Assembly: GCA_025980325.1 (NCBI GenBank)
Contig: JAICXQ010000002.1
Location: forward strand, 1-64,000
Direction of reading: 5' to 3'
Source: Frankiales bacterium
GTDB taxonomy: Bacteria; Actinomycetota; Actinomycetes; JAFAQI01
Length of the DNA stretch: 64,000 nucleotides
Shown here: piece after piece, positions 6,515 through 22,925 of the stretch
Numbering within the stretch: position 1 is the first letter of the stretch
Layout of the letters: the number at the start of each line of letters is the position of its first letter
Notes under the pieces: generated by a model
What the model was told of the DNA's origin: nothing
Seen by the model: the letters and a program-made list of their open reading frames with translations, nothing else
Database searches by the model: none
Translations under genes and position numbers: made by a program

Positions 6515-8095
6515 CTACACGTGCAGTTCGAGTTCCTGGAAGACCATCAGGTCGAACCAGTCGGCGTTCTCGGCCGCGAGTTGTTGCCAAATCCGCAGCG
6601 CGACGCGACGGATGGCGACAGGTGTGCTCGCCTCGTGAAGCTGCCATCGCAGCGAGTGGAGCCGTTGCGCCATGTGCCGTGAGCGCGCGGCGTGCCGCTG
6701 CAATTCGGCGCTGTCGCGAAGCCCTGTGACCGCACCGGCGACTCCCGGGATCACGATCGCGAGAAACGCCATCAGCCGGTCGGCGCCCCGGTGCCAGTCT
6801 CCGGCGCCCGCGTCGTGGGCGAGGACGGCGAGGCAGGTCACGGCGAACAGCGTCGCGATGACCCAGGTGAAGACCGCCTCCGCCTTGCGCGACCGCCGCT
6901 CGGTGCCGGCGTAGTAGGTGATCTGCGGTTCGACCCACGCCTGCTCGAGGAACGCCTTGACGGCGTGCGCCGGGCACCGCGTGTCTTGCGGTGACGGCCA
7001 ACGGCGGACGAGCTCGAGGCATACGTGGCTCACCCAACGGTTGCCGGTCATGCGCTCGGGCGGACCCTCGATGGGGACACCCGCAGCGCCACCCTGAGTG
7101 GAGATCAGGTTCACGAAGAACATCGATCGCGCATTCTCGGCAAGGGCGCGGAACGTGAGCCAGTCCGCGTGCCATCGGCTACGCCGAGCAGTCACGACTG
7201 CGGTCAACAACAGCACCAAGACGAGCAACTCGCTGATCGACAACCAGTCGTTGCCCGGCGAGTACGTCAGCTCCACCGTCGCCAGCAGCACCGCTGTGGC
7301 CGCGCCGAGGAACAGCACCAGCCGGGCGTACCGCTCGCGCCGCCGCAGCCGCAGCGCCAGCGCGTCCGCGCGAGTGAAGACTGGCTCCGCCCAGCCGAGC
7401 ACCGGCTCGATCACATCACCGTCCAGTTGCGCGGCTGCGGCGGCGCGGTGAAGCTCCTGCGACCAGCGAGGTTCACCGGACGCGCGCCGTCCCTCGCGGT
7501 TGAGTTGTCCGATCCGGCGCAACGCACGAAAGTCGACCGGCCGTTTGTCGACGTCGAGATCGAAAGTGGTCGGGTCGATGCGATAGACCGCGGGCGCGTG
7601 CCGATGATGACGGGCTTCCTCGACCACCGCCGCGGTGCCGCCCTCGCGGCGCGGGCGGCTTTGGTCCAGTACCGCGACGAGGACGTCGCAGCTGTCGATG
7701 ATCGCCGTCCCCGCCGCGGCGTACGACTCACTGCTCGAACCCTGCGGCTCGATCTGCCGCATGCTGCTGGCGATTCCCAGCAACGACTCGAACTCGCGCA
7801 CCGATGCCTCGTCACCGAGCGTCGGCTTGTACTTCGCGACGGACATGGGCAACACAGCCGCGAGCAATGTTCCCGGTTCGCGCAAGACGGTCCGGGCAAC
7901 GTACTGATCCGGCCCTCTCGCCAATGCGGAGACCACCCCGAAACAAACGTCCGCGAAACCGGCGGCGGCCGCCTGCCTGCGCAGTCGCGCGATCACTTCT
8001 TCGACCCGGCGTTCGATTCCCGGATCGGCGACGGCGTCGCGGTGCCCGGTGATGCCGATCCAGATCCGGTACGGGATCGGCTCCCACTCCCCCAT
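6515..8095 (-). CDS. SLOG/LSDAT-like domain fused to SLATT/DUF4231-like multi-TM region
   Basis: N-terminus IWIGITGHRD...CFGVVSALARGPDQYVARTVL...IDSCDVLVAVLDQSRPRREGGTAAVVEEARH resembles a Rossmannoid nucleotide-binding SLOG fold; C-terminal half has two TM pairs followed by helices. Confidence 0.65.
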   Translation of the reverse strand: MGEWEPIPYRIWIGITGHRDAVADPGIERRVEEVIARLRRQAAAAGFADVCFGVVSALARGPDQYVARTVLREPGTLLAAVLPMSVAKYKPTLGDEASVREFESLLGIASSMRQIEPQGSSSESYAAAGTAIIDSCDVLVAVLDQSRPRREGGTAAVVEEARHHRHAPAVYRIDPTTFDLDVDKRPVDFRALRRIGQLNREGRRASGEPRWSQELHRAAAAAQLDGDVIEPVLGWAEPVFTRADALALRLRRRERYARLVLFLGAATAVLLATVELTYSPGNDWLSISELLVLVLLLTAVVTARRSRWHADWLTFRALAENARSMFFVNLISTQGGAAGVPIEGPPERMTGNRWVSHVCLELVRRWPSPQDTRCPAHAVKAFLEQAWVEPQITYYAGTERRSRKAEAVFTWVIATLFAVTCLAVLAHDAGAGDWHRGADRLMAFLAIVIPGVAGAVTGLRDSAELQRHAARSRHMAQRLHSLRWQLHEASTPVAIRRVALRIWQQLAAENADWFDLMVFQELELHV

Positions 8096-8211
8096 GGCAC
8101 GCCAGTTTCGCGCACGGCACGCAGCGTTGTGACGGCTTTTGTCGTATCCCGGCGCGGCGGGCCCTAACCGCCTACGCTGACCCGCAACGTGGGTTTCATG
8201 GGGGTGCCGGG

Positions 8212-9771
8212 ATGCGACTCAAGCGCCAGCACACGAGTCAGCTACGCGTCTTCATCAGCTACCGCCGGGACGATTCGTCGGGACAAACCGGACGGCTCGC
8301 CGACGGGCTGATCGCGCGGCTCGGGCGTCCTGCTGTCTACGTCGACGTCGACTCGCTGGCACCGGGACTGGACTTCGTCGACCAGATTCACAGCAGCCTC
8401 GAAGAAGCAACCGTCGTACTCGCGGTCATCGGCCCGACGTGGTTGTCGGCGAGGGGTCCGCGCGGGCGGCGCCTCGACGACGAGAACGACTACGTACGGC
8501 TCGAGATCGAGGCCGCACTGGCGCGTGACATCCCGGTCGTCCCGGTGCTCGTGCACGGCGCCGACATGCCGTCGCCGGCGGACTTGCCGCCCTCGATCAG
8601 CCGGCTGTCGTACCGGCACGCCTTCACATTGTCGGACAACAGCTGGACTCGCGACCTCGACGCATTCGTCAAGCAACTGCAGTTCTATTTCAGCGGCAAC
8701 AAGCATCGCCCGCTGGCCCGGGAGGCAGCCGCGGTCGCGAGCGAAGAGCATCCACACGTTCGGGCCCGCGGCAGTAGCCGGCGTTGGCAGGCTGCGGCCG
8801 TCGGGGTCGCTGCGCTGCTGGCCGGCACCGCGGTCTACGTCAGCGGCGTGGGCCGGGGGTCGGACACCCACGGGATCAAGACCGCAGGTCTGGACACTCG
8901 GCCGACACCGTCGTCGTCGCCCGGGGTCGTGACGACTGCGTTGAGGCTGCTGCCGGCAACGCTCAAGTTCTACGTCGGGCAGAAGGTTCAGCTCAAGCCG
9001 ACCGTCGCGGTAAGTGGCGGCCCTCCGCCGCCGGCGAGCGCGGCAATCTGGAGCACCGGCAACCCGCGCGTCGTTCAGGTCGGCAAGACCGGTCTCTTGC
9101 GGGCGATCGGTCCCGGCCGGACCACGGTGACCGTACGACTGGCCCAACTCCAGGCGACCGCCGTGGTGACCGTCGTCGCGGGCGCCAGACCGATGCCCGC
9201 GTCGAGCCCGACGAGTCAGCCGGTGATCGCGACGTCCGCACCGTCCGACCAACCGCCGACACTCGACGCGATCGGCGGGCAGAGCAACGACGAGGGAAGC
9301 AGCCCCCGGCTGACTCTCGGCGGGCACGATCCCGACGGCGACGCGCTGACGTATTCGGCGAGCGGGCTGCCGGCCGGCCTGCACCTGAGCGGGAGCGTCA
9401 TCAGCGGCACGATCTCGCCGACCGCCGCCAACGTGACGTCCGCCTACACGAGCCTGAAGTCAGCGGCGTTCACCGTCACGGTCGCCGTTCACGCGGGCGG
9501 GAAGTCCGCGACCCGACGGTTCACCTGGACCGTGCGCGATGTCGAGTTCGTCATGCCGAACTACGTCGGCTATTACGGCTGCAACGGCGACGCGAATTGC
9601 ACCGACCCGTCCAGCCTGCGCAACGTCAAGTACTACAACCATCACTTCACCTGCACCGTCACCAGCGATCCGAACCTGGTCGACACGATCGCCAGCCAGA
9701 GCCCGACCGCCGGCCGCACGTGGAACTGGACGGCGCAAGCGACGTTCAGCTACTACAGCTCCTCTTGCTAG
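8212..9771 (+). CDS. TIR-domain transmembrane protein with Ig-like and PASTA-like C-terminal region
   Basis: TIR: RVFISYRRDDSSGQTGRLADGL...VYVDVDSLAPGLDFVDQI...VLAVIGPTWL...DYVRLEIEAALARDIPVVPVLV; one TM (WQAAAVGVAALLAGTAVYVSGVG); BIG2-like segment; DPDGDALTYSASGLPAGLHL; Cys-rich end. Confidence 0.8.
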   Translation: MRLKRQHTSQLRVFISYRRDDSSGQTGRLADGLIARLGRPAVYVDVDSLAPGLDFVDQIHSSLEEATVVLAVIGPTWLSARGPRGRRLDDENDYVRLEIEAALARDIPVVPVLVHGADMPSPADLPPSISRLSYRHAFTLSDNSWTRDLDAFVKQLQFYFSGNKHRPLAREAAAVASEEHPHVRARGSSRRWQAAAVGVAALLAGTAVYVSGVGRGSDTHGIKTAGLDTRPTPSSSPGVVTTALRLLPATLKFYVGQKVQLKPTVAVSGGPPPPASAAIWSTGNPRVVQVGKTGLLRAIGPGRTTVTVRLAQLQATAVVTVVAGARPMPASSPTSQPVIATSAPSDQPPTLDAIGGQSNDEGSSPRLTLGGHDPDGDALTYSASGLPAGLHLSGSVISGTISPTAANVTSAYTSLKSAAFTVTVAVHAGGKSATRRFTWTVRDVEFVMPNYVGYYGCNGDANCTDPSSLRNVKYYNHHFTCTVTSDPNLVDTIASQSPTAGRTWNWTAQATFSYYSSSC

Positions 9772-11342
9772 AAGTTCGGCGTCGGGTATGCGCCGGACCG
9801 CGGCCACGCATTGTTGGTGAGGTGCACGTCCCAGAATCCGCTCGCGCCGTCGGTGTACCAGATGTCGCCGCGGGCGGGATCGAACGCCGCCGATGACATC
9901 GCGTGCGAACCACCCGACGGCGGCATGTTGAAGTAGGCGACCTCACGCGGGTGGTACGGGTCCCGAATGTCGAACACCCGCAAGCCGGAGAGGATCATGC
10001 TGCACGCGACGATGCCCGGATCGTTCTGCCGCGGCACGGCGCAGTAGTGCGCGGCGTATCCCTGGGTGCCGCTGTTCGCGCCGGGATCGTTCTGCTGATC
10101 CGTCGCACGCTCCTGCGGGTTGTGCACCGCGAGCCGGATGCGGCTGATGACCTTCGGCTTGCGTTCGTCGCCGATGTCGATGATGCGCGCGGCGCCGACG
10201 CTGCTGTCGGGGTTGTACTGGAACACGTTCGAGCTGAACTCGTCGAACTCGATCAGGTACTTGTGGTGCTTGATCGTCACCGGGATGACGTTCTGCGGAA
10301 TGCTGATCTCCGGCCAGGTCAGCTTGGCGATGACCGGCACGTCGGCGGCCGGGCTGGAGATCGTGCGGTTCTGGATCTTCGAGATATCGAGGATGACCAG
10401 GCCACCGGTGCGGCTGTCGTTGCCGAAACCGGAGATCGAGGTGAAGTAGTTGCAACACGGCGCCGCGAGGTACGCGCGGTTGCCGTCCGGCGAGATCGCC
10501 ATGCCGTGGGAGCCGTACGTCTCGGTGTGCCAGATGATCCGCGGCAGCGCGGGATCGGTGAGGTCGATCGCGGTGATGCCTTCGCGCGCGGTCGCCGTCG
10601 CCCAGAACGTGCGGCCGTCGGGTGAGAATCCGCTCTCGTGGCCGAGCGGGCCGATCGGCAGCGAGCTCTCGAACACCGGATGGCGGCAGTCACTCGCGAC
10701 GCTGTAGACGTCGACGATCCCGACCTGCGTCGCCGGTGATCCTGCGTCCGCGACGAGCAGGCCGACCTTGGTGTTGAGCCGCAACGACTCGTGCGGCGTG
10801 TCCATCGCCGGCGTCGTGAGGTTCGCCGTCATCACCGGCTTGCGCGGGTTCGACATGTCCAGCACGTACGTCCCGGCGGGGTCGCCCTTCGCCGCGTCGG
10901 TGGGGAACAGCAGCGTGCTGTCGTAGAACGCGCAGACATGGCCGTGCTTGTCGACGTAACGCGCGACCCGGTAGCCGCCCGAGTTGCCGAAGTGCGAGAC
11001 CTCGACCGCGTTGCACGTGTAGCCGATCGCGGCCCGGCCGTCGGTGTAGTCCTTCGCCGGCACCCGGCCCTGCCAACTCGTCTCCGGATGCGACCCGCGG
11101 CCGCACTTCGCCTGCGGCGTCGAGCCGAGCTTGAGGTTGCGCGCCACGTCGAAGTACGGCGGCACCGGGGTGTGCTCGGTGACCATCCAGTTGACGTCGT
11201 TGGCCGGCGTGTGCGCCGCCGGCGCCGGCGAGCCGGCGCCGATCGCACCGAACGCGCCGGCGGACAGGCACGTCACTCCGACCGCGGCGAGCCCGATCAG
11301 GACGGAACGCCGGTCCAGCACAGCAGCAAGGAAGGCGGTCAT
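9768..11342 (-). CDS. Secreted LVIVD-repeat beta-propeller protein
   Basis: Repeated GTYVLDMSNPRKP, ITAIDLTDPALPRII, GLVILDISKI, LRVFDIRDPYHPREVAYF; N-terminal signal/TM MTAFLAAVLDRRSVLIGLAAVGVTCLSAGAF. Confidence 0.8.
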   Translation of the reverse strand: MTAFLAAVLDRRSVLIGLAAVGVTCLSAGAFGAIGAGSPAPAAHTPANDVNWMVTEHTPVPPYFDVARNLKLGSTPQAKCGRGSHPETSWQGRVPAKDYTDGRAAIGYTCNAVEVSHFGNSGGYRVARYVDKHGHVCAFYDSTLLFPTDAAKGDPAGTYVLDMSNPRKPVMTANLTTPAMDTPHESLRLNTKVGLLVADAGSPATQVGIVDVYSVASDCRHPVFESSLPIGPLGHESGFSPDGRTFWATATAREGITAIDLTDPALPRIIWHTETYGSHGMAISPDGNRAYLAAPCCNYFTSISGFGNDSRTGGLVILDISKIQNRTISSPAADVPVIAKLTWPEISIPQNVIPVTIKHHKYLIEFDEFSSNVFQYNPDSSVGAARIIDIGDERKPKVISRIRLAVHNPQERATDQQNDPGANSGTQGYAAHYCAVPRQNDPGIVACSMILSGLRVFDIRDPYHPREVAYFNMPPSGGSHAMSSAAFDPARGDIWYTDGASGFWDVHLTNNAWPRSGAYPTPNF

Positions 11343-11520
11343 ACGAGGGTGTTTCCCCCCTCGCGGCCGGTTTCCCTTCTCCGGCGGCACCGTTACTCCT
11401 ACTACTTTCTGTCGTTGAGTATGCAGGAGGCGGCCGCGGGTCCGTCGAAAACTACCTGCGCTGCCTCCGGCCGCTCGCCCACTGGCAGCCATTTGCCCAG
11501 GTAAGTCAAGGAGTATCGAC

Positions 11521-13983
11521 GTGCGCGTCCCCCACCGTGGTGTGATCTCGCTGGTCTCGGCCGGCGTCCTTGCCGCATCGGCCGTTGCCTCGTTCGCCAC
11601 CGCGTCGGCGCCTACGAAGGCGACCGCGCTCGTGCGCACGAAGGCCGTGCTGCCCGGACTCGCGCACGCGACCTCGCTCGGCGCCGCTCCCGGCAGCATG
11701 CGCCTGACCATCGGCCTCGGCCTGGCCCACCCGGACCCCGCCGGCGAGCAGGCGGCCTACCGCGCGCTCTACGACCCGAAGAGCCCGGCGTACCGGCACT
11801 TCCTCACCCCGGCGCAGTACGACGCGCGCTTCGGCGTGCCGGCCGCGACGGTCCGGGCGGCCGAGGCATGGCTTCGTTCCGGCGGGCTGACGAACGTCAG
11901 CGCCGACTCGACCGGCGACTACGTGACCGCGTCCGGGACCACGGCACAGCTCGCGAAACTCATGCACACCAGCTTCGGCCTGTTCCGCGCCGGCACGGTT
12001 CGCTTCGTCGCCAACACGATCGCGCCGGAGGTGCCCGCGTCGCTTCCGGTCACCGGCGTCCTCGGGCTCGACACGCTGCACCGTTCGTACACGCCGTCGC
12101 AGGTGCACGCGATCAACCGCTCGAACGGCGTCGCCGACAAGGCCGTTCCGGCCGCGCCGGCGCCGTACACCGGTTTGCTCACCCCGCAGAACATGTGGGG
12201 CATCTACGACATGCCGAACAGCAACATGGGCCAGGGCCAGTCGGCCGGGTTGTTCATGGAGGGCTACACCAACAGCGTCATCGCGAACCTGCGGGTGTAC
12301 GAGCGCCGGCACTCGCTGCCGCAGGTGCCGGTTCGCGTCGTGCGCGGCGGCACCGGCGACGACAGGGCGTTCGGCGACAACACCGACGCGATCGAGTGGT
12401 ACCTCGACAGCGACGCGATCACCGGCGTCGCGCCGAAGCTGCGCGAGCTCGACCTGTACACCGCGACCAATCTCTTCGACGTCTCGGTCGGCAAGGACTT
12501 CGCGGCCTGGGCCAGTGATCCGCGCGGGCCGTTGCAGATGAACGCGTCGTTCGGCGAGTGCGAAGCGAGCCCGGCGAACCCCGTCCTCGGACCGCTCGCG
12601 CAGCCGCCGTTCTACTACGGCAGCGAGGCCGGCGACGAGCTCGAAGCCGTCGCCGAGCCGGTGCTCATGCACGCCAACCTCGAAGGCCGCACGCTGTTCG
12701 CGTCGACCGGCGACACCGGCGGTTCGTGCCCGGCGATCGTCGTGCCGGTGCTCGGCGCCGGCAACGGCATCACTCCGCAACCGGTGCCCGAGCAGAACTA
12801 CCCCGCGGTCAGCCCGCACGTCACCGCCGTCGCCGGCACCGTCGTCGAGACCGCCGGTCAGCCGCAGCCGAGCCAGCCGGCGCGCCGCGCGACCGAAGAC
12901 GGCTGGACCTACAGCGGTGGCGGCTCCAGCTTCTACATCTCCGAGCCGGCGTACCAGACGAAGGTCGCCGCGGTGAACCGGCCGTGCGTCGTCAACCCGA
13001 GCGGCACGCCGTACTCGCCCGGCACGATCTGCCGCGGCGTCGCCGACATCGCGGACATGTCCGGCACGGTGTTCTCCTACGAGACGACCAACACGCTGAA
13101 CTCGAACTTCTACGACATCGAGCAGGACATGACCGACAGCTCGGAAGGCGGCACGAGTCTCGCCTCGCCGCTCGCCGTCGGGATGTGGTCGCGGATCCAG
13201 GCCGGCGCGCCGTCGGTCAAGGGCCTCGGCTTCGCGAACGAGACTTTCTACCGGCTCGGTCTCGGCAAGAACTACCACCACGACTTCTACGACATCACCC
13301 AGTCGGAGACCCAGGGCGGCAACTTCTACTACCAGGCCGGACCGGGCTGGGACTACGTCAGCGGCTGGGGGTCGATGGACGTCCGCAACATCATGGCGGA
13401 CGTCGACCACCGGCTCACGCCGTCGCACCCGAATCGCGTCGTCAACCCGCCGATGACACTGCGCGGCTGCGCGACGATGACGAGCCCGGCCAACAACGCC
13501 AACAACGCGCTGGACCCGATGCAGCAGGACTCCAGTCTCGACATCCGTTCCGCGAGCCTGCGCCAGCACGGCAACGCGCTCGTCGTCACGATCAGCGGAC
13601 CGACGTTGTCGACCTCCGATCCGGCCGGGGCGAGCGGTGGCGCGGACTTCATCGAGACGTGGACCGTCGGTACGACGACGTACTTCGCCGAGGCGACGAT
13701 CGATGCGCAAGGCAACGTCACGTATCACGACGGCATCTCGACCGGCGGGTACTCGCAGAAGAACACGATCAGCGGCAGCTTCGCGCAGCACACGATCACG
13801 ATGACCGTTCCGTTGCGTGACGTCGGCAACCCGGGCCGCGGCACCGTGCTCGCGTACCCGTACGCGTTCGCGCAGTACGGATTGTCCGGTCCGACGGTCG
13901 TGACGAACCCGCTGTACTTCACCGAGGACGTCGCGACCGCCGGTCAGCCGGCGCAGGGTGTGGTGCTCGGCAGCCGCTGCTGA
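11521..13983 (+). CDS. S53 family peptidase (sedolisin/kumamolisin-like) with pro-domain
   Basis: Pro-domain AYRALYDPKSPAYRHFLTPAQYDARFG; catalytic regions DAIEWYLDSDAI and GGTSLASPLAVGMW; signal peptide. Confidence 0.88.
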   Translation: MRVPHRGVISLVSAGVLAASAVASFATASAPTKATALVRTKAVLPGLAHATSLGAAPGSMRLTIGLGLAHPDPAGEQAAYRALYDPKSPAYRHFLTPAQYDARFGVPAATVRAAEAWLRSGGLTNVSADSTGDYVTASGTTAQLAKLMHTSFGLFRAGTVRFVANTIAPEVPASLPVTGVLGLDTLHRSYTPSQVHAINRSNGVADKAVPAAPAPYTGLLTPQNMWGIYDMPNSNMGQGQSAGLFMEGYTNSVIANLRVYERRHSLPQVPVRVVRGGTGDDRAFGDNTDAIEWYLDSDAITGVAPKLRELDLYTATNLFDVSVGKDFAAWASDPRGPLQMNASFGECEASPANPVLGPLAQPPFYYGSEAGDELEAVAEPVLMHANLEGRTLFASTGDTGGSCPAIVVPVLGAGNGITPQPVPEQNYPAVSPHVTAVAGTVVETAGQPQPSQPARRATEDGWTYSGGGSSFYISEPAYQTKVAAVNRPCVVNPSGTPYSPGTICRGVADIADMSGTVFSYETTNTLNSNFYDIEQDMTDSSEGGTSLASPLAVGMWSRIQAGAPSVKGLGFANETFYRLGLGKNYHHDFYDITQSETQGGNFYYQAGPGWDYVSGWGSMDVRNIMADVDHRLTPSHPNRVVNPPMTLRGCATMTSPANNANNALDPMQQDSSLDIRSASLRQHGNALVVTISGPTLSTSDPAGASGGADFIETWTVGTTTYFAEATIDAQGNVTYHDGISTGGYSQKNTISGSFAQHTITMTVPLRDVGNPGRGTVLAYPYAFAQYGLSGPTVVTNPLYFTEDVATAGQPAQGVVLGSRC

Positions 13984-14163: not shown

Positions 14164-17100
14164 GTGCGTCGCCTACTGCACGTCCTGGTTTCGACTGCCA
14201 CCCTGACCGCCGCGTTCGCCGTCGCCGCGCCCGGGCTCACCGCGGCCGCGGCAGCGGCGGCGCCACCGGCCCAGTCGACGCATCAGTCTGCGCATCACTC
14301 GACACCCGCGGCGGCGACCGCGGCGGCACACGCCGGCGGGCATCGGGTGAGCCACCCGAACGGTGCGCTTCATCACAAAGGCGGCGACCTGACCGGCAAG
14401 CCCGGCCCGTTGCGCAGCGGCCACGCGACACCGCAGCCGATCCGCGGCGGCAACGGCGGCTGGGCGCCGTCGGATCTCTGGAGCGCGTACTCGTTGCCGG
14501 CGTGGCAGTTGGGCTACGGGCGAACGGTTGGCATCGTCGACGCGTACGACGACCCGACGGTCGAGTCGGACCTCGCGACCTATCGCTCGTTCTACGGCCT
14601 GCCGCCGTGCACGGTCGCGAACGGGTGCTTCCGTCGCGTCGCGCAGGACGGTTCGACGAACTACCCGGCGCCGGCTCCCGTGGACAACAACTGGGCCGCG
14701 GAGACCGCGCTCGATGTCGAGATGGTCTCGGCGACCTGCCCGAACTGTCACATCGTCCTGGTCGAGACGAACTCCGACTTCACCTCCGACCTGCTCGCCG
14801 GTGTCGACGAAGCGGTGAGCCTCGGCGTCAACTCGGTGAACATGTCGTGGGGTGCCGGCGAGTACCCGGGCGAGACGACCGACGACTCGCACTTCGCGCA
14901 CCCCGGCATCGCCTTCGTCGCGTCGTCCGGCGACTACGGCTACGGCCCGACCATCTGGCCGGCCGCGTCGCCGAACGTGTTCGCGGTCGGCGCGACCGAC
15001 CTCAACACCGACGCGTTCGGCAACTGGTACGAGACCGCGTGGGCCGGCAGCACGTCCGGTTGCAGCGTGTACGAACCGAAGCCGGCGTACCAGCACGACG
15101 GCGGTTGCAGCACCCGCACGACGACCGACATCTCGGCGGTCGGCGGCACCCCGTTGTCGATGTTCCTCACCTACCCGCAGAACGGCTGGTCGTCCGGTTG
15201 GCAAGGTGCCGGCGGCACCAGTGCATCGGCGCCGATCGTCGCCGGCATCCTCGTGCTCGCACCGCAAGACACGGCCGCGACCACCGGCCCGGGCAACTGG
15301 TACGCCTCCGCGTACACGCCCGGCGCGTTCTCGGTCAACGACGTCGTGGTCGGATCCACCGGCGCGTGCGGCAACTACCTGTGCAACTCCGGCCCCGGCT
15401 ACGACGGCCCGACCGGGCTCGGCACTCCGGACGGCTTACCGCCCTCGCTGAACAGCCGCGCGCCGTCAGAGCTGTGGGGCGCGTTCAACAGCGGCGAAGG
15501 CGGATCGAAGTCGTGTACGTCGGGCGATCCCGTCGTGTGCGCGACCGGCGACCTGACCGAGACGGCCACGGATCTCAAGGTTTCCGGCCGCGGCCGCGCG
15601 CTCGACTTCACCCGTTCGTACAACGCACTCGACGCCGCCGGCGCGTCCGCGCCGGATGCGCTCGGCTGGGGCTGGACCGACTCGTACGCGATGTCTCTGT
15701 CGACCGACGCGACGACCGGCGACGTCACCGTGCATCAGGAGAACGGCGCGACGGTCACGTTCACGCCGCAGGGCAGCGGCTACACCGCACCGGGTTGGGT
15801 GACCGCGAGCTTGCGGCACAACACCGACGGCACCTTCACCTACGCGCTGCCGAACCAGACCAGCTACGTCTTCTCCGCGACCGGCCAGCTCGTCTCCGAA
15901 AGCGACCGGAACGGCTACCTCACCACGCTCGCGTACGACGGCTCGGGCCGGCTCGCTTCGGTCACCGATCCGGCCGGCCGCGCGCTCACCTTCGGCTACA
16001 ACGCGAGCGGCCAGCTCGCCACCGTGACCGACCCGCTCGGCCGCGCGGTCGGCTACGGCTACGACGCGGCCGGCAACCTCACCAGCGTCACCGATCCGGC
16101 CGGCAACGTCACGCGCTACGGCTACGACAGCGCGCACCGCATGACGACGATGACCGACCCGCGTGGCGGCTTGACCACCAACGTCTACGACACCTCGAAC
16201 CGGGTCGTCATGCAGGCCGATCCGATGAACCGAGTGACAACGTTCGCGTACACCCCGACCACCACGACGATCACCGATCCGACCGGTGACGTGACGGTCG
16301 AGACGTACAACTCGTACCTGCAGCTCATCAAGGTCGTGCACGGCTCCGGCTCCGCCGACGAGAACACCGCGACCTTCACGTACGACGCGTACTCGGGTGA
16401 AGAGGCCTCCGCCACCGACGGCAACGGCCACACGACGTTCACGAGCTGGGACGCGCAGGGCAACGAGATCAACGTGACCGACGCGCTCAATCGCTACACC
16501 GCGGCCACCTACGACACGGCGAACGACCTGACCAGTGTCACCGACAACAGCGGTGTCACGACGACGTACAGCTACGACGGCAACCACAACCTGACCGGCA
16601 CGTCGACCCCGCTCGGCGGATCGTCGGGCACCGTAACGACGACGTACGGGTACGACGCCGCGCATCCCGGTGACATCACCTCGATCACCGATCCCGGCGG
16701 GCACGTCAGCCATCTGCGCTACGACCCGAACGGCGATCTCGTCTCGGTCACCGACGCGGACGGCAACGTCGCCAGCGCGACGTACAACGGGATCGGCTGG
16801 CGGACCTCGAGCATCAGCCCGAAGGGCAACGTCGCCGGCGCGAACCCGGCGGCATTCACCACGACGTTCGGCTACGACGCCGACGGGCGGCCGACGACCG
16901 TGACCGACCCGCTCGGCCACGTCACCCGCACCGGTTACGACGCCGACGGCAATCCGACCAGCGTCACCGACCCGCTCAACCACGTCACGACCTACACCTA
17001 CGACGCGGACAACGAGCGGACGAAGGTCACGAACCCGGACAGCACGAGCAGCAGCACGGGGTACAACGCCGACGGCCATCCGCTCACGCAGACCGACGGC

Positions 17101-19095
17101 AACGGCCACGTCACGAGCTACGCCTACGACGCGCTGAACCGGCTCGCCACGGTGACGGATCCGCTGCACCGCACGACGCGATACAGCTATGACGCGGCGG
17201 GCAACATCCTCACCCTCACCACGCCGGCCGGCGCGACGACGTCGTACGGGTACGACCTCGGGAACGAGCTGACGTCGATCACGTACTCCGACGGCCAGAC
17301 GCCGAACGTGACGTACAGCTACGACGCCGACGGCCGTCGCTTCCAGATGACCGACGGCAGCGGCACGACGACGTACGGGTACGACGCGCTCGGCCGGCTG
17401 ACCGGGCAGGTCGACGGCGCCGGCAACTTCGTCGGCTACGGCTACGACCCGGCCGGCCGGCTGACGACCCTGACCTACCCGACCGGGCAAGCGGTGACGC
17501 GCGGCTACGACGCCGCCGGCAACCTGACGTCGGTCACCGACTTCGGCGGCAACACGACGCACTACGCGTACGACGCGAACAGCAACGTCAGCACCGAGAC
17601 GCGGCCGAACTCGACCGCGGCGACGTTCGGTTACGACGACGCGAACCGGGTGACATCGATCGCCGACACCGGCCCGGCGGGCACGATCCTGAACCTGCCG
17701 TACACCTACGGCGCCAGCAGCCTGCTCGCGTCGGCCAACGTCACCGGCACGTCCCAACCGGTCACGCAGACCTACGGCTACGACAGCCGCGATCGGGTCA
17801 CCAGCGCGACCGTCCCGGTCAACACGAGCAACGTCGCGTCGGACTCGTACTCCTACGACGCGGCCGACGAAATCACGAAGATCACCGTCGGCGGCCAAGC
17901 CGCGACGACGCTGACGCACGACGCCGCGGACGAGCTCACGAGCGCGACGAACGCGGTCGGCACGACGGCATACACCAACGACCAGAACGGCAACCGCACG
18001 AAGATGGTCGACGCCGCCGGCAACACGACGACGTACACCTACGACCAGGCGAACCGCCTGACGAGCTTCAGCGGCCCGGCGCCGGGCGCGGCGAACACCG
18101 CGGGCGCGCCGCTCGTCGCGGCGTCGTACACCTACAACGGCGACGGCTTGCGGGTCGGCAAGGGCGTCACCGTCGACGGGGTCGGCGTGAGCCTTCCGTT
18201 CTCGTGGGATCTGTGTGCGACCACCCCGTTGCTTCTGACCGACGGGACCAACGAGTTCGTCTACGGCGCCGGTGACAAGCCGATCGAGCAGGTCAACAGC
18301 ATCACCGGCACGGTCACCTGGTTGCACACCGACCGGCAAGGCAGCGTCCGGGCACTCTCCAACAGCCTCGGCACCGTCACCGCGACGACGACGTACGACC
18401 CCTACGGGCGGACGATCAGCGCAACCGGAACGGCGACCAGCCCGCTCGGGTACGACGGCCAGTACACCGACTCCGAGTCCGGCCTCGTCTACCTGCGCGC
18501 GCGGTACTACGAGCCGGCCACCGGCCAGTTCCTCACCGTCGACCCGCTGGGCGCGCTGACCCGCCAGCCGTATGCATACGGCGGGAGCGATCCGCTCAAC
18601 ATGTGGGACCCGACCGGTTTGTGCAACGCCAACCCGTTCAGCCTGTCGTTCTGGACGCAGGGCAACTGCATCTCCGACGCGGCCGGCGCGGTCGGCGACT
18701 GGGTCTCGGCGCACGGCGACACGTTGGTCGACCTCGGTGCCGGCATCACCTGCATCGTCGCCGGTCCGGAAAGCTTCGGCGCCGCCTGCGTTCCGGCCGC
18801 GGCGATCGCGGCGGGGTACTCCACCTACACGAAGGTCAAGGAAGACATCGCGAACGGTGACGGCATCACGCAGATCATCGAGGACTCGCTGCTCAACGTC
18901 GCGAAGGCGGGCCTGTTGCTCACGCCGGCCGCCGTCGAGCAGATCGCCGAGCAGACCATCGCCGAGGAAGGCGCGGCGAACGTCAGCACCTGGCTCAAGC
19001 TGCTCAAGAGCACCGCGGGCGGCATCGACAACGTGCTGACCGTGGAGGGCCTGTCCAGCGATTTGATCAAGCTGCTGCCGTGCAGCCTGCAATGA
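14164..19095 (+). CDS. Secreted S53-like peptidase domain fused to RHS/YD-repeat protein with variable C-terminal domain
   Basis: Protease part ETALDVEMVSATCPNCHIVLVE, FVASSGDYGYG, GGTSASAPIVAGI; then many GYDxxGxLxxVTDP YD repeats; RHS core YLRARYYEPATGQFLTVDPLG...NMWDPTGLC; unique tail. Confidence 0.9.
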   Translation: MRRLLHVLVSTATLTAAFAVAAPGLTAAAAAAAPPAQSTHQSAHHSTPAAATAAAHAGGHRVSHPNGALHHKGGDLTGKPGPLRSGHATPQPIRGGNGGWAPSDLWSAYSLPAWQLGYGRTVGIVDAYDDPTVESDLATYRSFYGLPPCTVANGCFRRVAQDGSTNYPAPAPVDNNWAAETALDVEMVSATCPNCHIVLVETNSDFTSDLLAGVDEAVSLGVNSVNMSWGAGEYPGETTDDSHFAHPGIAFVASSGDYGYGPTIWPAASPNVFAVGATDLNTDAFGNWYETAWAGSTSGCSVYEPKPAYQHDGGCSTRTTTDISAVGGTPLSMFLTYPQNGWSSGWQGAGGTSASAPIVAGILVLAPQDTAATTGPGNWYASAYTPGAFSVNDVVVGSTGACGNYLCNSGPGYDGPTGLGTPDGLPPSLNSRAPSELWGAFNSGEGGSKSCTSGDPVVCATGDLTETATDLKVSGRGRALDFTRSYNALDAAGASAPDALGWGWTDSYAMSLSTDATTGDVTVHQENGATVTFTPQGSGYTAPGWVTASLRHNTDGTFTYALPNQTSYVFSATGQLVSESDRNGYLTTLAYDGSGRLASVTDPAGRALTFGYNASGQLATVTDPLGRAVGYGYDAAGNLTSVTDPAGNVTRYGYDSAHRMTTMTDPRGGLTTNVYDTSNRVVMQADPMNRVTTFAYTPTTTTITDPTGDVTVETYNSYLQLIKVVHGSGSADENTATFTYDAYSGEEASATDGNGHTTFTSWDAQGNEINVTDALNRYTAATYDTANDLTSVTDNSGVTTTYSYDGNHNLTGTSTPLGGSSGTVTTTYGYDAAHPGDITSITDPGGHVSHLRYDPNGDLVSVTDADGNVASATYNGIGWRTSSISPKGNVAGANPAAFTTTFGYDADGRPTTVTDPLGHVTRTGYDADGNPTSVTDPLNHVTTYTYDADNERTKVTNPDSTSSSTGYNADGHPLTQTDGNGHVTSYAYDALNRLATVTDPLHRTTRYSYDAAGNILTLTTPAGATTSYGYDLGNELTSITYSDGQTPNVTYSYDADGRRFQMTDGSGTTTYGYDALGRLTGQVDGAGNFVGYGYDPAGRLTTLTYPTGQAVTRGYDAAGNLTSVTDFGGNTTHYAYDANSNVSTETRPNSTAATFGYDDANRVTSIADTGPAGTILNLPYTYGASSLLASANVTGTSQPVTQTYGYDSRDRVTSATVPVNTSNVASDSYSYDAADEITKITVGGQAATTLTHDAADELTSATNAVGTTAYTNDQNGNRTKMVDAAGNTTTYTYDQANRLTSFSGPAPGAANTAGAPLVAASYTYNGDGLRVGKGVTVDGVGVSLPFSWDLCATTPLLLTDGTNEFVYGAGDKPIEQVNSITGTVTWLHTDRQGSVRALSNSLGTVTATTTYDPYGRTISATGTATSPLGYDGQYTDSESGLVYLRARYYEPATGQFLTVDPLGALTRQPYAYGGSDPLNMWDPTGLCNANPFSLSFWTQGNCISDAAGAVGDWVSAHGDTLVDLGAGITCIVAGPESFGAACVPAAAIAAGYSTYTKVKEDIANGDGITQIIEDSLLNVAKAGLLLTPAAVEQIAEQTIAEEGAANVSTWLKLLKSTAGGIDNVLTVEGLSSDLIKLLPCSLQ
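15860..18450 (+). repeat. YD/RHS repeat array in coding sequence
   Basis: Recurring ~20-aa units (YGYDAAGNLTSVTDPAGN) with recurring ggctacgacgc / gtcaccgaccc DNA; approximate bounds. Confidence 0.85.
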
Positions 19096-22213: not shown

Positions 22214-22621
22214 TCACGGCAGCAGCGTCAGAGCGGTCGTGTGCCGTGGCCGCACGACCTGGAAGTGGCGCCGATCCAATGTCGCGACCTCGGTGACGCC
22301 GAGCCGTTCGGCCGCCGTCACGACCGATGCGTCGACCGCGCCCAACGGAAGGTCGTGGTAGCGCGCGGTGAGTTCGGCGATCCGCAGCCAATCGCCGGGC
22401 TCCACCGGCTCCGCGAGCAGAACCCCGGAGGCCAGGTCGCCGAGGAACCGCACCTCCGCCCCGGCACCTAGTCGGGACCCGATCAGGTACGCGACCTCGG
22501 TGATCACAAGTGTTGGCACGATAAGCGGACCTGGATGCGACTCCAACAGAGCGAGACAGGAGGCATGGTGCCGATCATCGGCGTCGACGTACGCATACAG
22601 CGGGCCGGCGTCGACGATCAG
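22214..22621 (-). CDS. PIN-domain (VapC-like) toxin with probable CTG start
   Basis: Translating upstream of the ATG ORF gives LIVDAGPLYAYVDADDRHHASCLALLESHPGPL; CTGA overlaps the antitoxin stop; later acidic residues GAVDAS, ATLDRRHF. Confidence 0.72.
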   Translation of the reverse strand: MIVDAGPLYAYVDADDRHHASCLALLESHPGPLIVPTLVITEVAYLIGSRLGAGAEVRFLGDLASGVLLAEPVEPGDWLRIAELTARYHDLPLGAVDASVVTAAERLGVTEVATLDRRHFQVVRPRHTTALTLLP

Positions 22622-22842
22622 CGCGATCCGGTCACCTCGTTGCGCAGGATCTCCTCGATCTGCTCCGAGACGTCCGAGTGACCGCTGCGGCCTGCGGCGG
22701 CCGCAGCCAGACGCCGACGACCGCCGACATGAGCTTCGATTGCTTCGCGGGTGAGTTCGGAGATCGTCATGTGCCGTCGAGCGGCCTCATGGCGCAAGCG
22801 CGCGTCGAGTTCCTCTGGCAGCTTGATCGTCGTGCGCACCAT
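22618..22842 (-). CDS. RHH (CopG/Arc-like) antitoxin of the VapBC-like module
   Basis: MVRTTIKLPEELDARLRHEAARRHMTISELTREAIEAHV; directly upstream of the PIN gene. Confidence 0.8.
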   Translation of the reverse strand: MVRTTIKLPEELDARLRHEAARRHMTISELTREAIEAHVGGRRRLAAAAAGRSGHSDVSEQIEEILRNEVTGSR

Positions 22843-22925
22843 GTATGCCAGCATACCATGCTTGTCCGCTTGATTTCGCCGGTCGACCACGCTCCCGATG
22901 AGAGTGGACACGCGCCTGATGCAGG

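What the first reader, a model, noticed from the sequence alone, without database searches (positions are those of the whole stretch)
6515..9771. Divergent SLOG-like/multi-TM gene plus TIR-receptor gene: candidate nucleotide-signalling system
Seen: two divergent ORFs about 116 nt apart, one TIR-containing and one with a SLOG/LSDAT-like N-terminus and membrane C-terminus. Known: in Thoeris, a TIR protein (ThsB) makes an NAD-derived signal sensed by the SLOG domain of ThsA; SLOG and SLATT 2TM domains were described by comparative genomics as parts of nucleotide-centred conflict systems. Inference: this pair could be a TIR-to-SLOG system with a membrane effector, arranged differently from standard Thoeris (SLOG N-terminal, TIR membrane-bound).
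Basis: partly seen in the sequence, partly recalled or inferred. Interest (0 to 1): 0.8.

Follow-up and report, generated by a model that had tools for sequence, protein, structure and literature searches.

The report
Membrane TIR receptor with SLOG-SLATT effector
Two neighbouring bacterial genes appear to form a small alarm circuit: a membrane receptor whose inner TIR part probably makes a nucleotide signal when something outside is sensed, and a partner that probably reads the signal and opens or damages the membrane; the parts are known, but this fused, outward-facing arrangement is an undescribed variant.

Summary
In detail: both ORFs are real, divergent, 116 nt apart, at the stated coordinates. 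Gene A (6515-8095, -) is a SLOG domain fused to two 2TM SLATT domains (SLATT_3 + SLATT_1). Its model's best PDB match is the SLOG protein YpsA; the cADPR-binding SLOG of Thoeris ThsA follows as a weak match. Gene B (8212-9771, +) is an N-terminal TIR with the putative catalytic Glu (E98), one TM helix and an Ig/cadherin-like ectodomain. The pairing is not chance: the only two other full-length gene A homologues found (about 30% identical, distant actinobacterial lineages) each sit beside a TIR membrane-protein gene, in tandem or convergent order; these genomes hold only 1-2 TIR_2 genes. In other actinobacteria SLOG and SLATT_3-SLATT_1 are separate neighbouring genes near FxsC (TIR-like), or SLATT_3-SLATT_1 lies beside a ThsB-type TIR. 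One caveat: a sister species keeps the TIR receptor but lacks gene A. In another, the same ectodomain sits on a Ser/Thr kinase, so it is probably a portable sensor. Verdict: a TIR-to-SLOG/SLATT signalling module, most likely a membrane-sensing, abortive, Thoeris-like conflict system; a new variant of a predicted kind, not Thoeris proper. Signal chemistry and trigger are untested.

The parts
6515..8095 (-). Gene A: SLOG-SLATT_3-SLATT_1 protein, 526 aa (predicted nucleotide-gated membrane effector)
7541..8074 (-). SLOG domain (aa ~8-185), with GxTGHR loop after strand 1 and GGT motif (aa 152-154)
   Evidence: AF2 model and Foldseek hits YpsA 2nx2 (E 2.5e-5) and, weakly, ThsA SLOG 7uxs; G17, G153, T154 invariant and H18, G152 nearly so in 27 SLOG sequences
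7124..7384 (-). SLATT_3-like 2TM domain (aa 238-324), TM helices aa 259-277 and 285-303
   Evidence: NF033610 E 2.3e-6, below its cut-off; hydropathy; helical hairpin 226-332 in the model
6551..6937 (-). SLATT_1-like 2TM domain (aa 387-515), TM helices aa 407-425 and 441-459
   Evidence: NF033634 E 8.2e-10, 38.8 bits against cut-off 41; helical hairpin 376-488 in the model
8096..8211 (.). 116-nt intergenic stretch from which both genes must be transcribed divergently; no sigma-70 consensus found
8212..9771 (+). Gene B: TIR-TM-ectodomain receptor-like protein, 519 aa
8248..8646 (+). TIR domain (aa 13-145); putative catalytic Glu E98 (codon 8503-8505) in YVRLEIEAAL
   Evidence: Pfam TIR_2 3.1e-12; aligned with C. 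elegans TIR-1; SARM1-like fold
8794..8850 (+). Single TM helix (aa 195-213), preceded by basic residues (positive inside)
8938..9147 (+). Big_2-like Ig domain (aa 243-312) of the ectodomain
   Evidence: Pfam Big_2 E 0.004 in the window, 3.1e-6 in the sister orthologue; phmmer to the Big_2 protein 7quz; AF2 beta domain
9259..9768 (+). He_PIG/cadherin-like domain plus Cys-containing C-terminal segment; the same module sits on a Ser/Thr kinase in a sister species

Best explanation
Gene B is a membrane receptor: its Ig/cadherin-like ectodomain monitors the cell envelope or exterior (inferred). On triggering, the cytoplasmic TIR domain is activated, probably by clustering, and converts NAD+ into an ADP-ribose-type signal (inferred from fold and E98). 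The SLOG domain of gene A binds that signal (inferred from fold). This makes the fused SLATT_3-SLATT_1 helices assemble or open in the membrane, collapsing permeability so the cell stops growing or dies (inferred; follows the published prediction for SLATT domains). Shown here: the architectures, the folds, the retained Glu, and the non-random pairing of SLOG-SLATT fusions with membrane TIR genes.
For: SLOG fold with YpsA as best match and the 3'cADPR-bound ThsA SLOG as a weak one. SLATT_3 + SLATT_1 hits and four TM helices in all three homologues (profile hits tested for the window and G100). TIR with SARM1-like fold and the putative catalytic Glu in all three partners. Pairing 3/3: window divergent; G100 convergent, TIR with C-terminal TM helices; G562 tandem, TIR-TM-beta-propeller. 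These genomes carry only 1, 1 and 2 TIR_2 genes, so chance adjacency is about 5e-10. The split form supports the fusion: 13 of 20 strong SLATT_3 loci have a SLOG gene 82-617 bp from the SLATT match, several with TIR-like FxsC nearby, and three others have a ThsB_TIR gene beside SLATT_3. The portable ectodomain (on a Ser/Thr kinase in G003) supports a receptor role. Literature: SLATT predicted as an ADPr-derivative-regulated membrane effector, with TIR-SLATT neighbourhoods in phages (PMC9503650); ThsA SLOG binds 3'cADPR (PMC11204291).
Against: A sister species (G002) keeps an orthologous TIR receptor (55% identical overall) and the same convergent downstream gene but has no SLOG-SLATT anywhere in its 91%-complete genome, so the TIR works without gene A there, perhaps with its separate SLATT_3-SLATT_1 gene. 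Only three fused homologues were found in the several hundred actinobacterial genomes sampled. The gene orders differ, so there is no conserved operon. No defence-island context was seen around the pair. The SLATT hits are below curated cut-offs. The ThsA SLOG match is weak (E 0.16). NADase activity, ligand binding and pore formation are untested.
Confidence: 0.58

Rival explanations
1. Two parallel outputs rather than sender and receiver: the TIR depletes NAD+ by itself, and the SLOG-SLATT protein responds to another nucleotide produced by the same stress.
For: The same SLOG clade also occurs without any TIR close by, for example beside caspase genes, and TIRs can act as self-contained NADases (general knowledge).
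Against: 3/3 adjacency with TIR genes that are nearly the only TIR_2 genes in those genomes; ThsB_TIR-SLATT_3 gene pairs elsewhere.
Confidence: 0.2
2. Gene B is a cell-wall or envelope-stress receptor of this genus, independent of gene A; gene A is a passenger inserted next to it.
For: The TIR gene and the convergent gene 3' of it are conserved in G002 without gene A; the same ectodomain occurs on a kinase.
Against: The other two fused homologues, in distant lineages, are also beside TIR genes although those TIR proteins have quite different C-terminal parts.
Confidence: 0.15
3. The TIR is a non-enzymatic scaffold that recruits the SLOG-SLATT protein directly, without a diffusible messenger.
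For: Many TIR domains act by assembly (general knowledge); both proteins are at the membrane.
Against: The putative catalytic Glu is kept in all the TIRs examined, and the SLOG nucleotide-binding motifs are conserved; SARM1 NADase fold.
Confidence: 0.07

Closest known systems
Thoeris type I (ThsB TIR + ThsA SIR2-SLOG)
   Same: TIR protein beside a protein with a SLOG sensor; the ThsA SLOG is among the (weaker) structural matches; the TIR keeps the putative catalytic Glu
   Different: No SIR2; SLOG is N-terminal; effector is tandem 2TM SLATT; the TIR is a membrane receptor with an ectodomain; divergent genes
Thoeris type II (TIR + TM-macro ThsA, PMC11204291)
   Same: TIR signal predicted to act on a membrane effector with a nucleotide-binding domain
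   Different: SLOG instead of macro domain; SLATT pairs instead of the TM-macro TM region
SMODS/SLOG-SLATT predicted conflict systems (Burroughs et al. 2015, cited in PMC7159879 and PMC9503650)
   Same: SLOG or TIR coupled to 2TM SLATT effectors; this finding is a direct realisation of that prediction
   Different: SLOG and SLATT_3-SLATT_1 in one polypeptide, paired with receptor-like TIR proteins with variable C-terminal domains; whether that 2015 paper lists this exact form could not be checked (not held)
FxSxx-COOH (FxsB/FxsC/TPR) clusters of actinobacteria
   Same: Contain SLOG, SLATT_3-SLATT_1 and a TIR-like protein (FxsC) as neighbouring genes
   Different: Components are separate; radical SAM peptide maturase and KGGVGR ATPase are present; none in the window neighbourhood
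IL-1R / Toll receptors
   Same: Ig-like ectodomain (IL-1R), one TM helix, cytoplasmic TIR
   Different: Reversed order (TIR N-terminal); analogy only, no homology of the ectodomains tested

Membership tests
Thoeris (type I) | Adjacent TIR protein (ThsB) | tested here: met
   TIR_2 E 3e-12 beside gene A; not over the Thoeris ThcB4 curated cut-off (30.9 against 220 bits)
Thoeris (type I) | ThsA effector with SIR2 NADase domain | tested here: not met
   No SIR2 in hmmscan or model
Thoeris (type I) | SLOG domain that binds cADPR isomers | tested here: inconclusive
   SLOG fold found (best match YpsA E 2.5e-5; ThsA SLOG E 0.16); ligand binding not testable
Thoeris (any) | Protects from phage by abortive infection | not testable with these tools
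   Needs experiment
SLATT effector family | 2TM SLATT domain by profile | tested here: inconclusive
   E 8e-10 and 2e-6, but 38.8 of 41 and 27.7 of 45 bits
SLATT effector family | Two TM helices per domain in a long helical hairpin | tested here: met
SLOG superfamily | Rossmannoid fold with nucleotide-binding loop after strand 1 and GG[x]T motif | tested here: met
   YpsA as best fold hit, conserved GHR and GGT
TIR NADase | Catalytic Glu on the TIR fold | tested here: met
   E98, aligned with the Glu region of TIR-1; same in G002 and G562 by pattern, and an aligned Glu in G100; activity not testable

The most novel reading that the evidence does not exclude
Bacteria possess outward-facing TIR receptors, built like mirror-image IL-1/Toll receptors with exchangeable Ig, beta-propeller or other C-terminal modules, which make an NAD-derived messenger that directly gates a SLOG-fused SLATT membrane effector: an outside-in, Thoeris-like alarm rather than an intracellular phage sensor.
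Probability: 0.35. Interest if true: 0.8.

Novelty: new variant of a known kind. Interest (0 to 1): 0.6.

Why it matters
The characterised bacterial TIR immune systems that I know of sense phage inside the cell. A TIR receptor with an extracellular sensor and a SLOG-gated membrane effector in one two-gene unit would let a nucleotide messenger be tested as the link between envelope sensing and membrane collapse, and would put the long-standing prediction that SLATT domains are nucleotide-gated effectors within reach of a simple test, because ligand sensor and effector are one polypeptide.

Tried and rejected
Genome-contig scans and the viral-contig scan found no relatives: pattern seeding is too strict for 30% identity. 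Plasmids gave only SLOG-domain or TIR-domain matches (TIR neighbourhoods), phages no match to gene A. Two TIR plasmid loci showed no annotated SLATT. PDB sequence search of gene A gave nothing useful. PASTA for the last 70 aa of gene B was considered from sequence pattern but not supported by Pfam, and the model there has low confidence. No sigma-70 promoter in the intergenic stretch. Mixing SLATT-only rows into the MSA misaligned and was dropped. Burroughs 2015 is not held in the paper library, so its exact list of architectures was not checked. Chance adjacency was rejected.

Full report
Observation.

Gene A. hmmscan finds DUF4231/SLATT_3 and SLATT_1 signals in the C-terminal half. Four hydrophobic helices fall in two pairs. 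No Pfam model covers the N-terminus, but an AF2 model from a 27-sequence alignment (mean pLDDT 79.5, mostly 85-96 in the N-terminal domain) has the SLOG protein YpsA as its best PDB match (E 2.5e-5, target TM 0.66); the Thoeris ThsA SLOG with 3'cADPR is a weaker match (E 0.16, probability 0.89). The GxTGHR loop and the GGT motif are conserved. Gene A is therefore SLOG-SLATT_3-SLATT_1.

Gene B. TIR_2; phmmer matches C. elegans TIR-1 over the whole TIR domain; the model's TIR part matches SARM1 (target TM 0.84, 27% identity). E98 lies in YVRLEIEAAL, aligned with the TIR-1 Glu region; a matching Glu is present in the sister orthologue and in the partner TIR proteins of G562 and G100. One TM helix with basic residues on its N-terminal side predicts a cytoplasmic TIR and an external Ig (Big_2-like) plus He_PIG/cadherin-like ectodomain.

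Is the pair real? Searching 395 genomes of the class and 397 of the phylum (the two samples overlap) gave only two more full-length gene A proteins, each 29-31% identical to the window's. G100 has it 3 nt from a convergent TIR gene with C-terminal TM helices. G562 has it in tandem with a TIR-TM-beta-propeller gene about 42 nt downstream, plus a separate DUF4231/SLATT gene nearby. TIR_2 genes per genome number 1, 1 and 2, so chance adjacency in all three is about 5e-10 (rough: assumes random gene order, ignores other TIR families, and counts the window case that prompted the search). Orientation differs in each, so the association has been kept or re-made despite rearrangement.

Context in other genomes. 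Of 20 strong SLATT_3 loci in the class, 13 have a stand-alone SLOG gene of the same clade within 82-617 bp, several in FxsB/FxsC/FxSxx-TPR clusters whose FxsC is TIR-like. Three others (G204, G246, G248) have a ThsB_TIR gene beside the SLATT_3-SLATT_1 gene. In G612, ThsB_TIR, a caspase gene and a SLOG gene stand in a row. The window protein thus fuses what is elsewhere split, and TIR is the recurrent partner.

The counter-example. G002, same genus, has an orthologous TIR receptor (55% identical) and the same convergent downstream gene (48% identical), but no SLOG or SLATT on the 16 kb fetched and no gene A relative in the genome; it has one SLATT_3-SLATT_1 gene on another contig. G003 carries the same ectodomain on a Ser/Thr kinase. 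I read this as a portable sensor module and a TIR receptor that can have other outputs; it lowers confidence that gene A is its only partner.

Mechanism. Shown: architectures, folds, motifs, pairing. Inferred: external trigger, TIR clustering, NAD+-derived signal, SLOG binding, SLATT opening, growth arrest. The last steps follow published predictions for SLATT (PMC9503650, PMC7159879) and the ThsA SLOG precedent (PMC11204291). Phage defence is likely but not shown; no defence island was seen around the pair.

Known or new. Not Thoeris proper (no SIR2; far below the curated Thoeris cut-off). It belongs to the predicted TIR/SLOG/SLATT conflict network; the fused effector with an outward-facing TIR receptor is a variant for which I found no description in the papers searched, with the limit that the 2015 founding paper could not be read.

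Noticed in passing
L106:5338-7206 (-), genome G003: A Ser/Thr protein kinase carries the same He_PIG + C-terminal ectodomain as the window's TIR receptor: sensor shared between TIR and kinase signalling.
   Followed up: partly
L081-L086 (several genomes, SLOG next to SLATT_3-SLATT_1): SLOG and SLATT_3-SLATT_1 genes are a recurrent pair, several of them in FxsB/FxsC/FxSxx-TPR (peptide maturase) clusters.
   Followed up: partly
L047:3875-5732 (genome G612); also L045, L046: ThsB_TIR + caspase + SLOG genes in a row, resembling a caspase-effector Thoeris with a separate SLOG gene; caspase beside SLOG also in L045 (Pfam) and L046 (by eye).
   Followed up: partly
L090, L091, L093: ThsB_TIR gene directly beside a SLATT_3-SLATT_1 gene: TIR-SLATT systems.
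   Followed up: partly
L043:2621-3298 (+), genome G562: An extra DUF4231/SLATT gene lies just beyond the TIR gene of the G562 pair, a possible third component.
   Followed up: no
window 9768-11711 (-): Convergent gene overlapping the TIR stop; syntenic and 48% identical in G002, no Pfam hit.
   Followed up: partly
window 22214-22911 (-): PIN-domain toxin and ribbon-helix-helix antitoxin pair (VapBC-like).
   Followed up: no
window 14164-19095 (+): 1643-aa RHS/YD-repeat protein with an N-terminal protease-like region (by eye), beside a pro-kumamolisin-type protein at 11521-13983.
   Followed up: no
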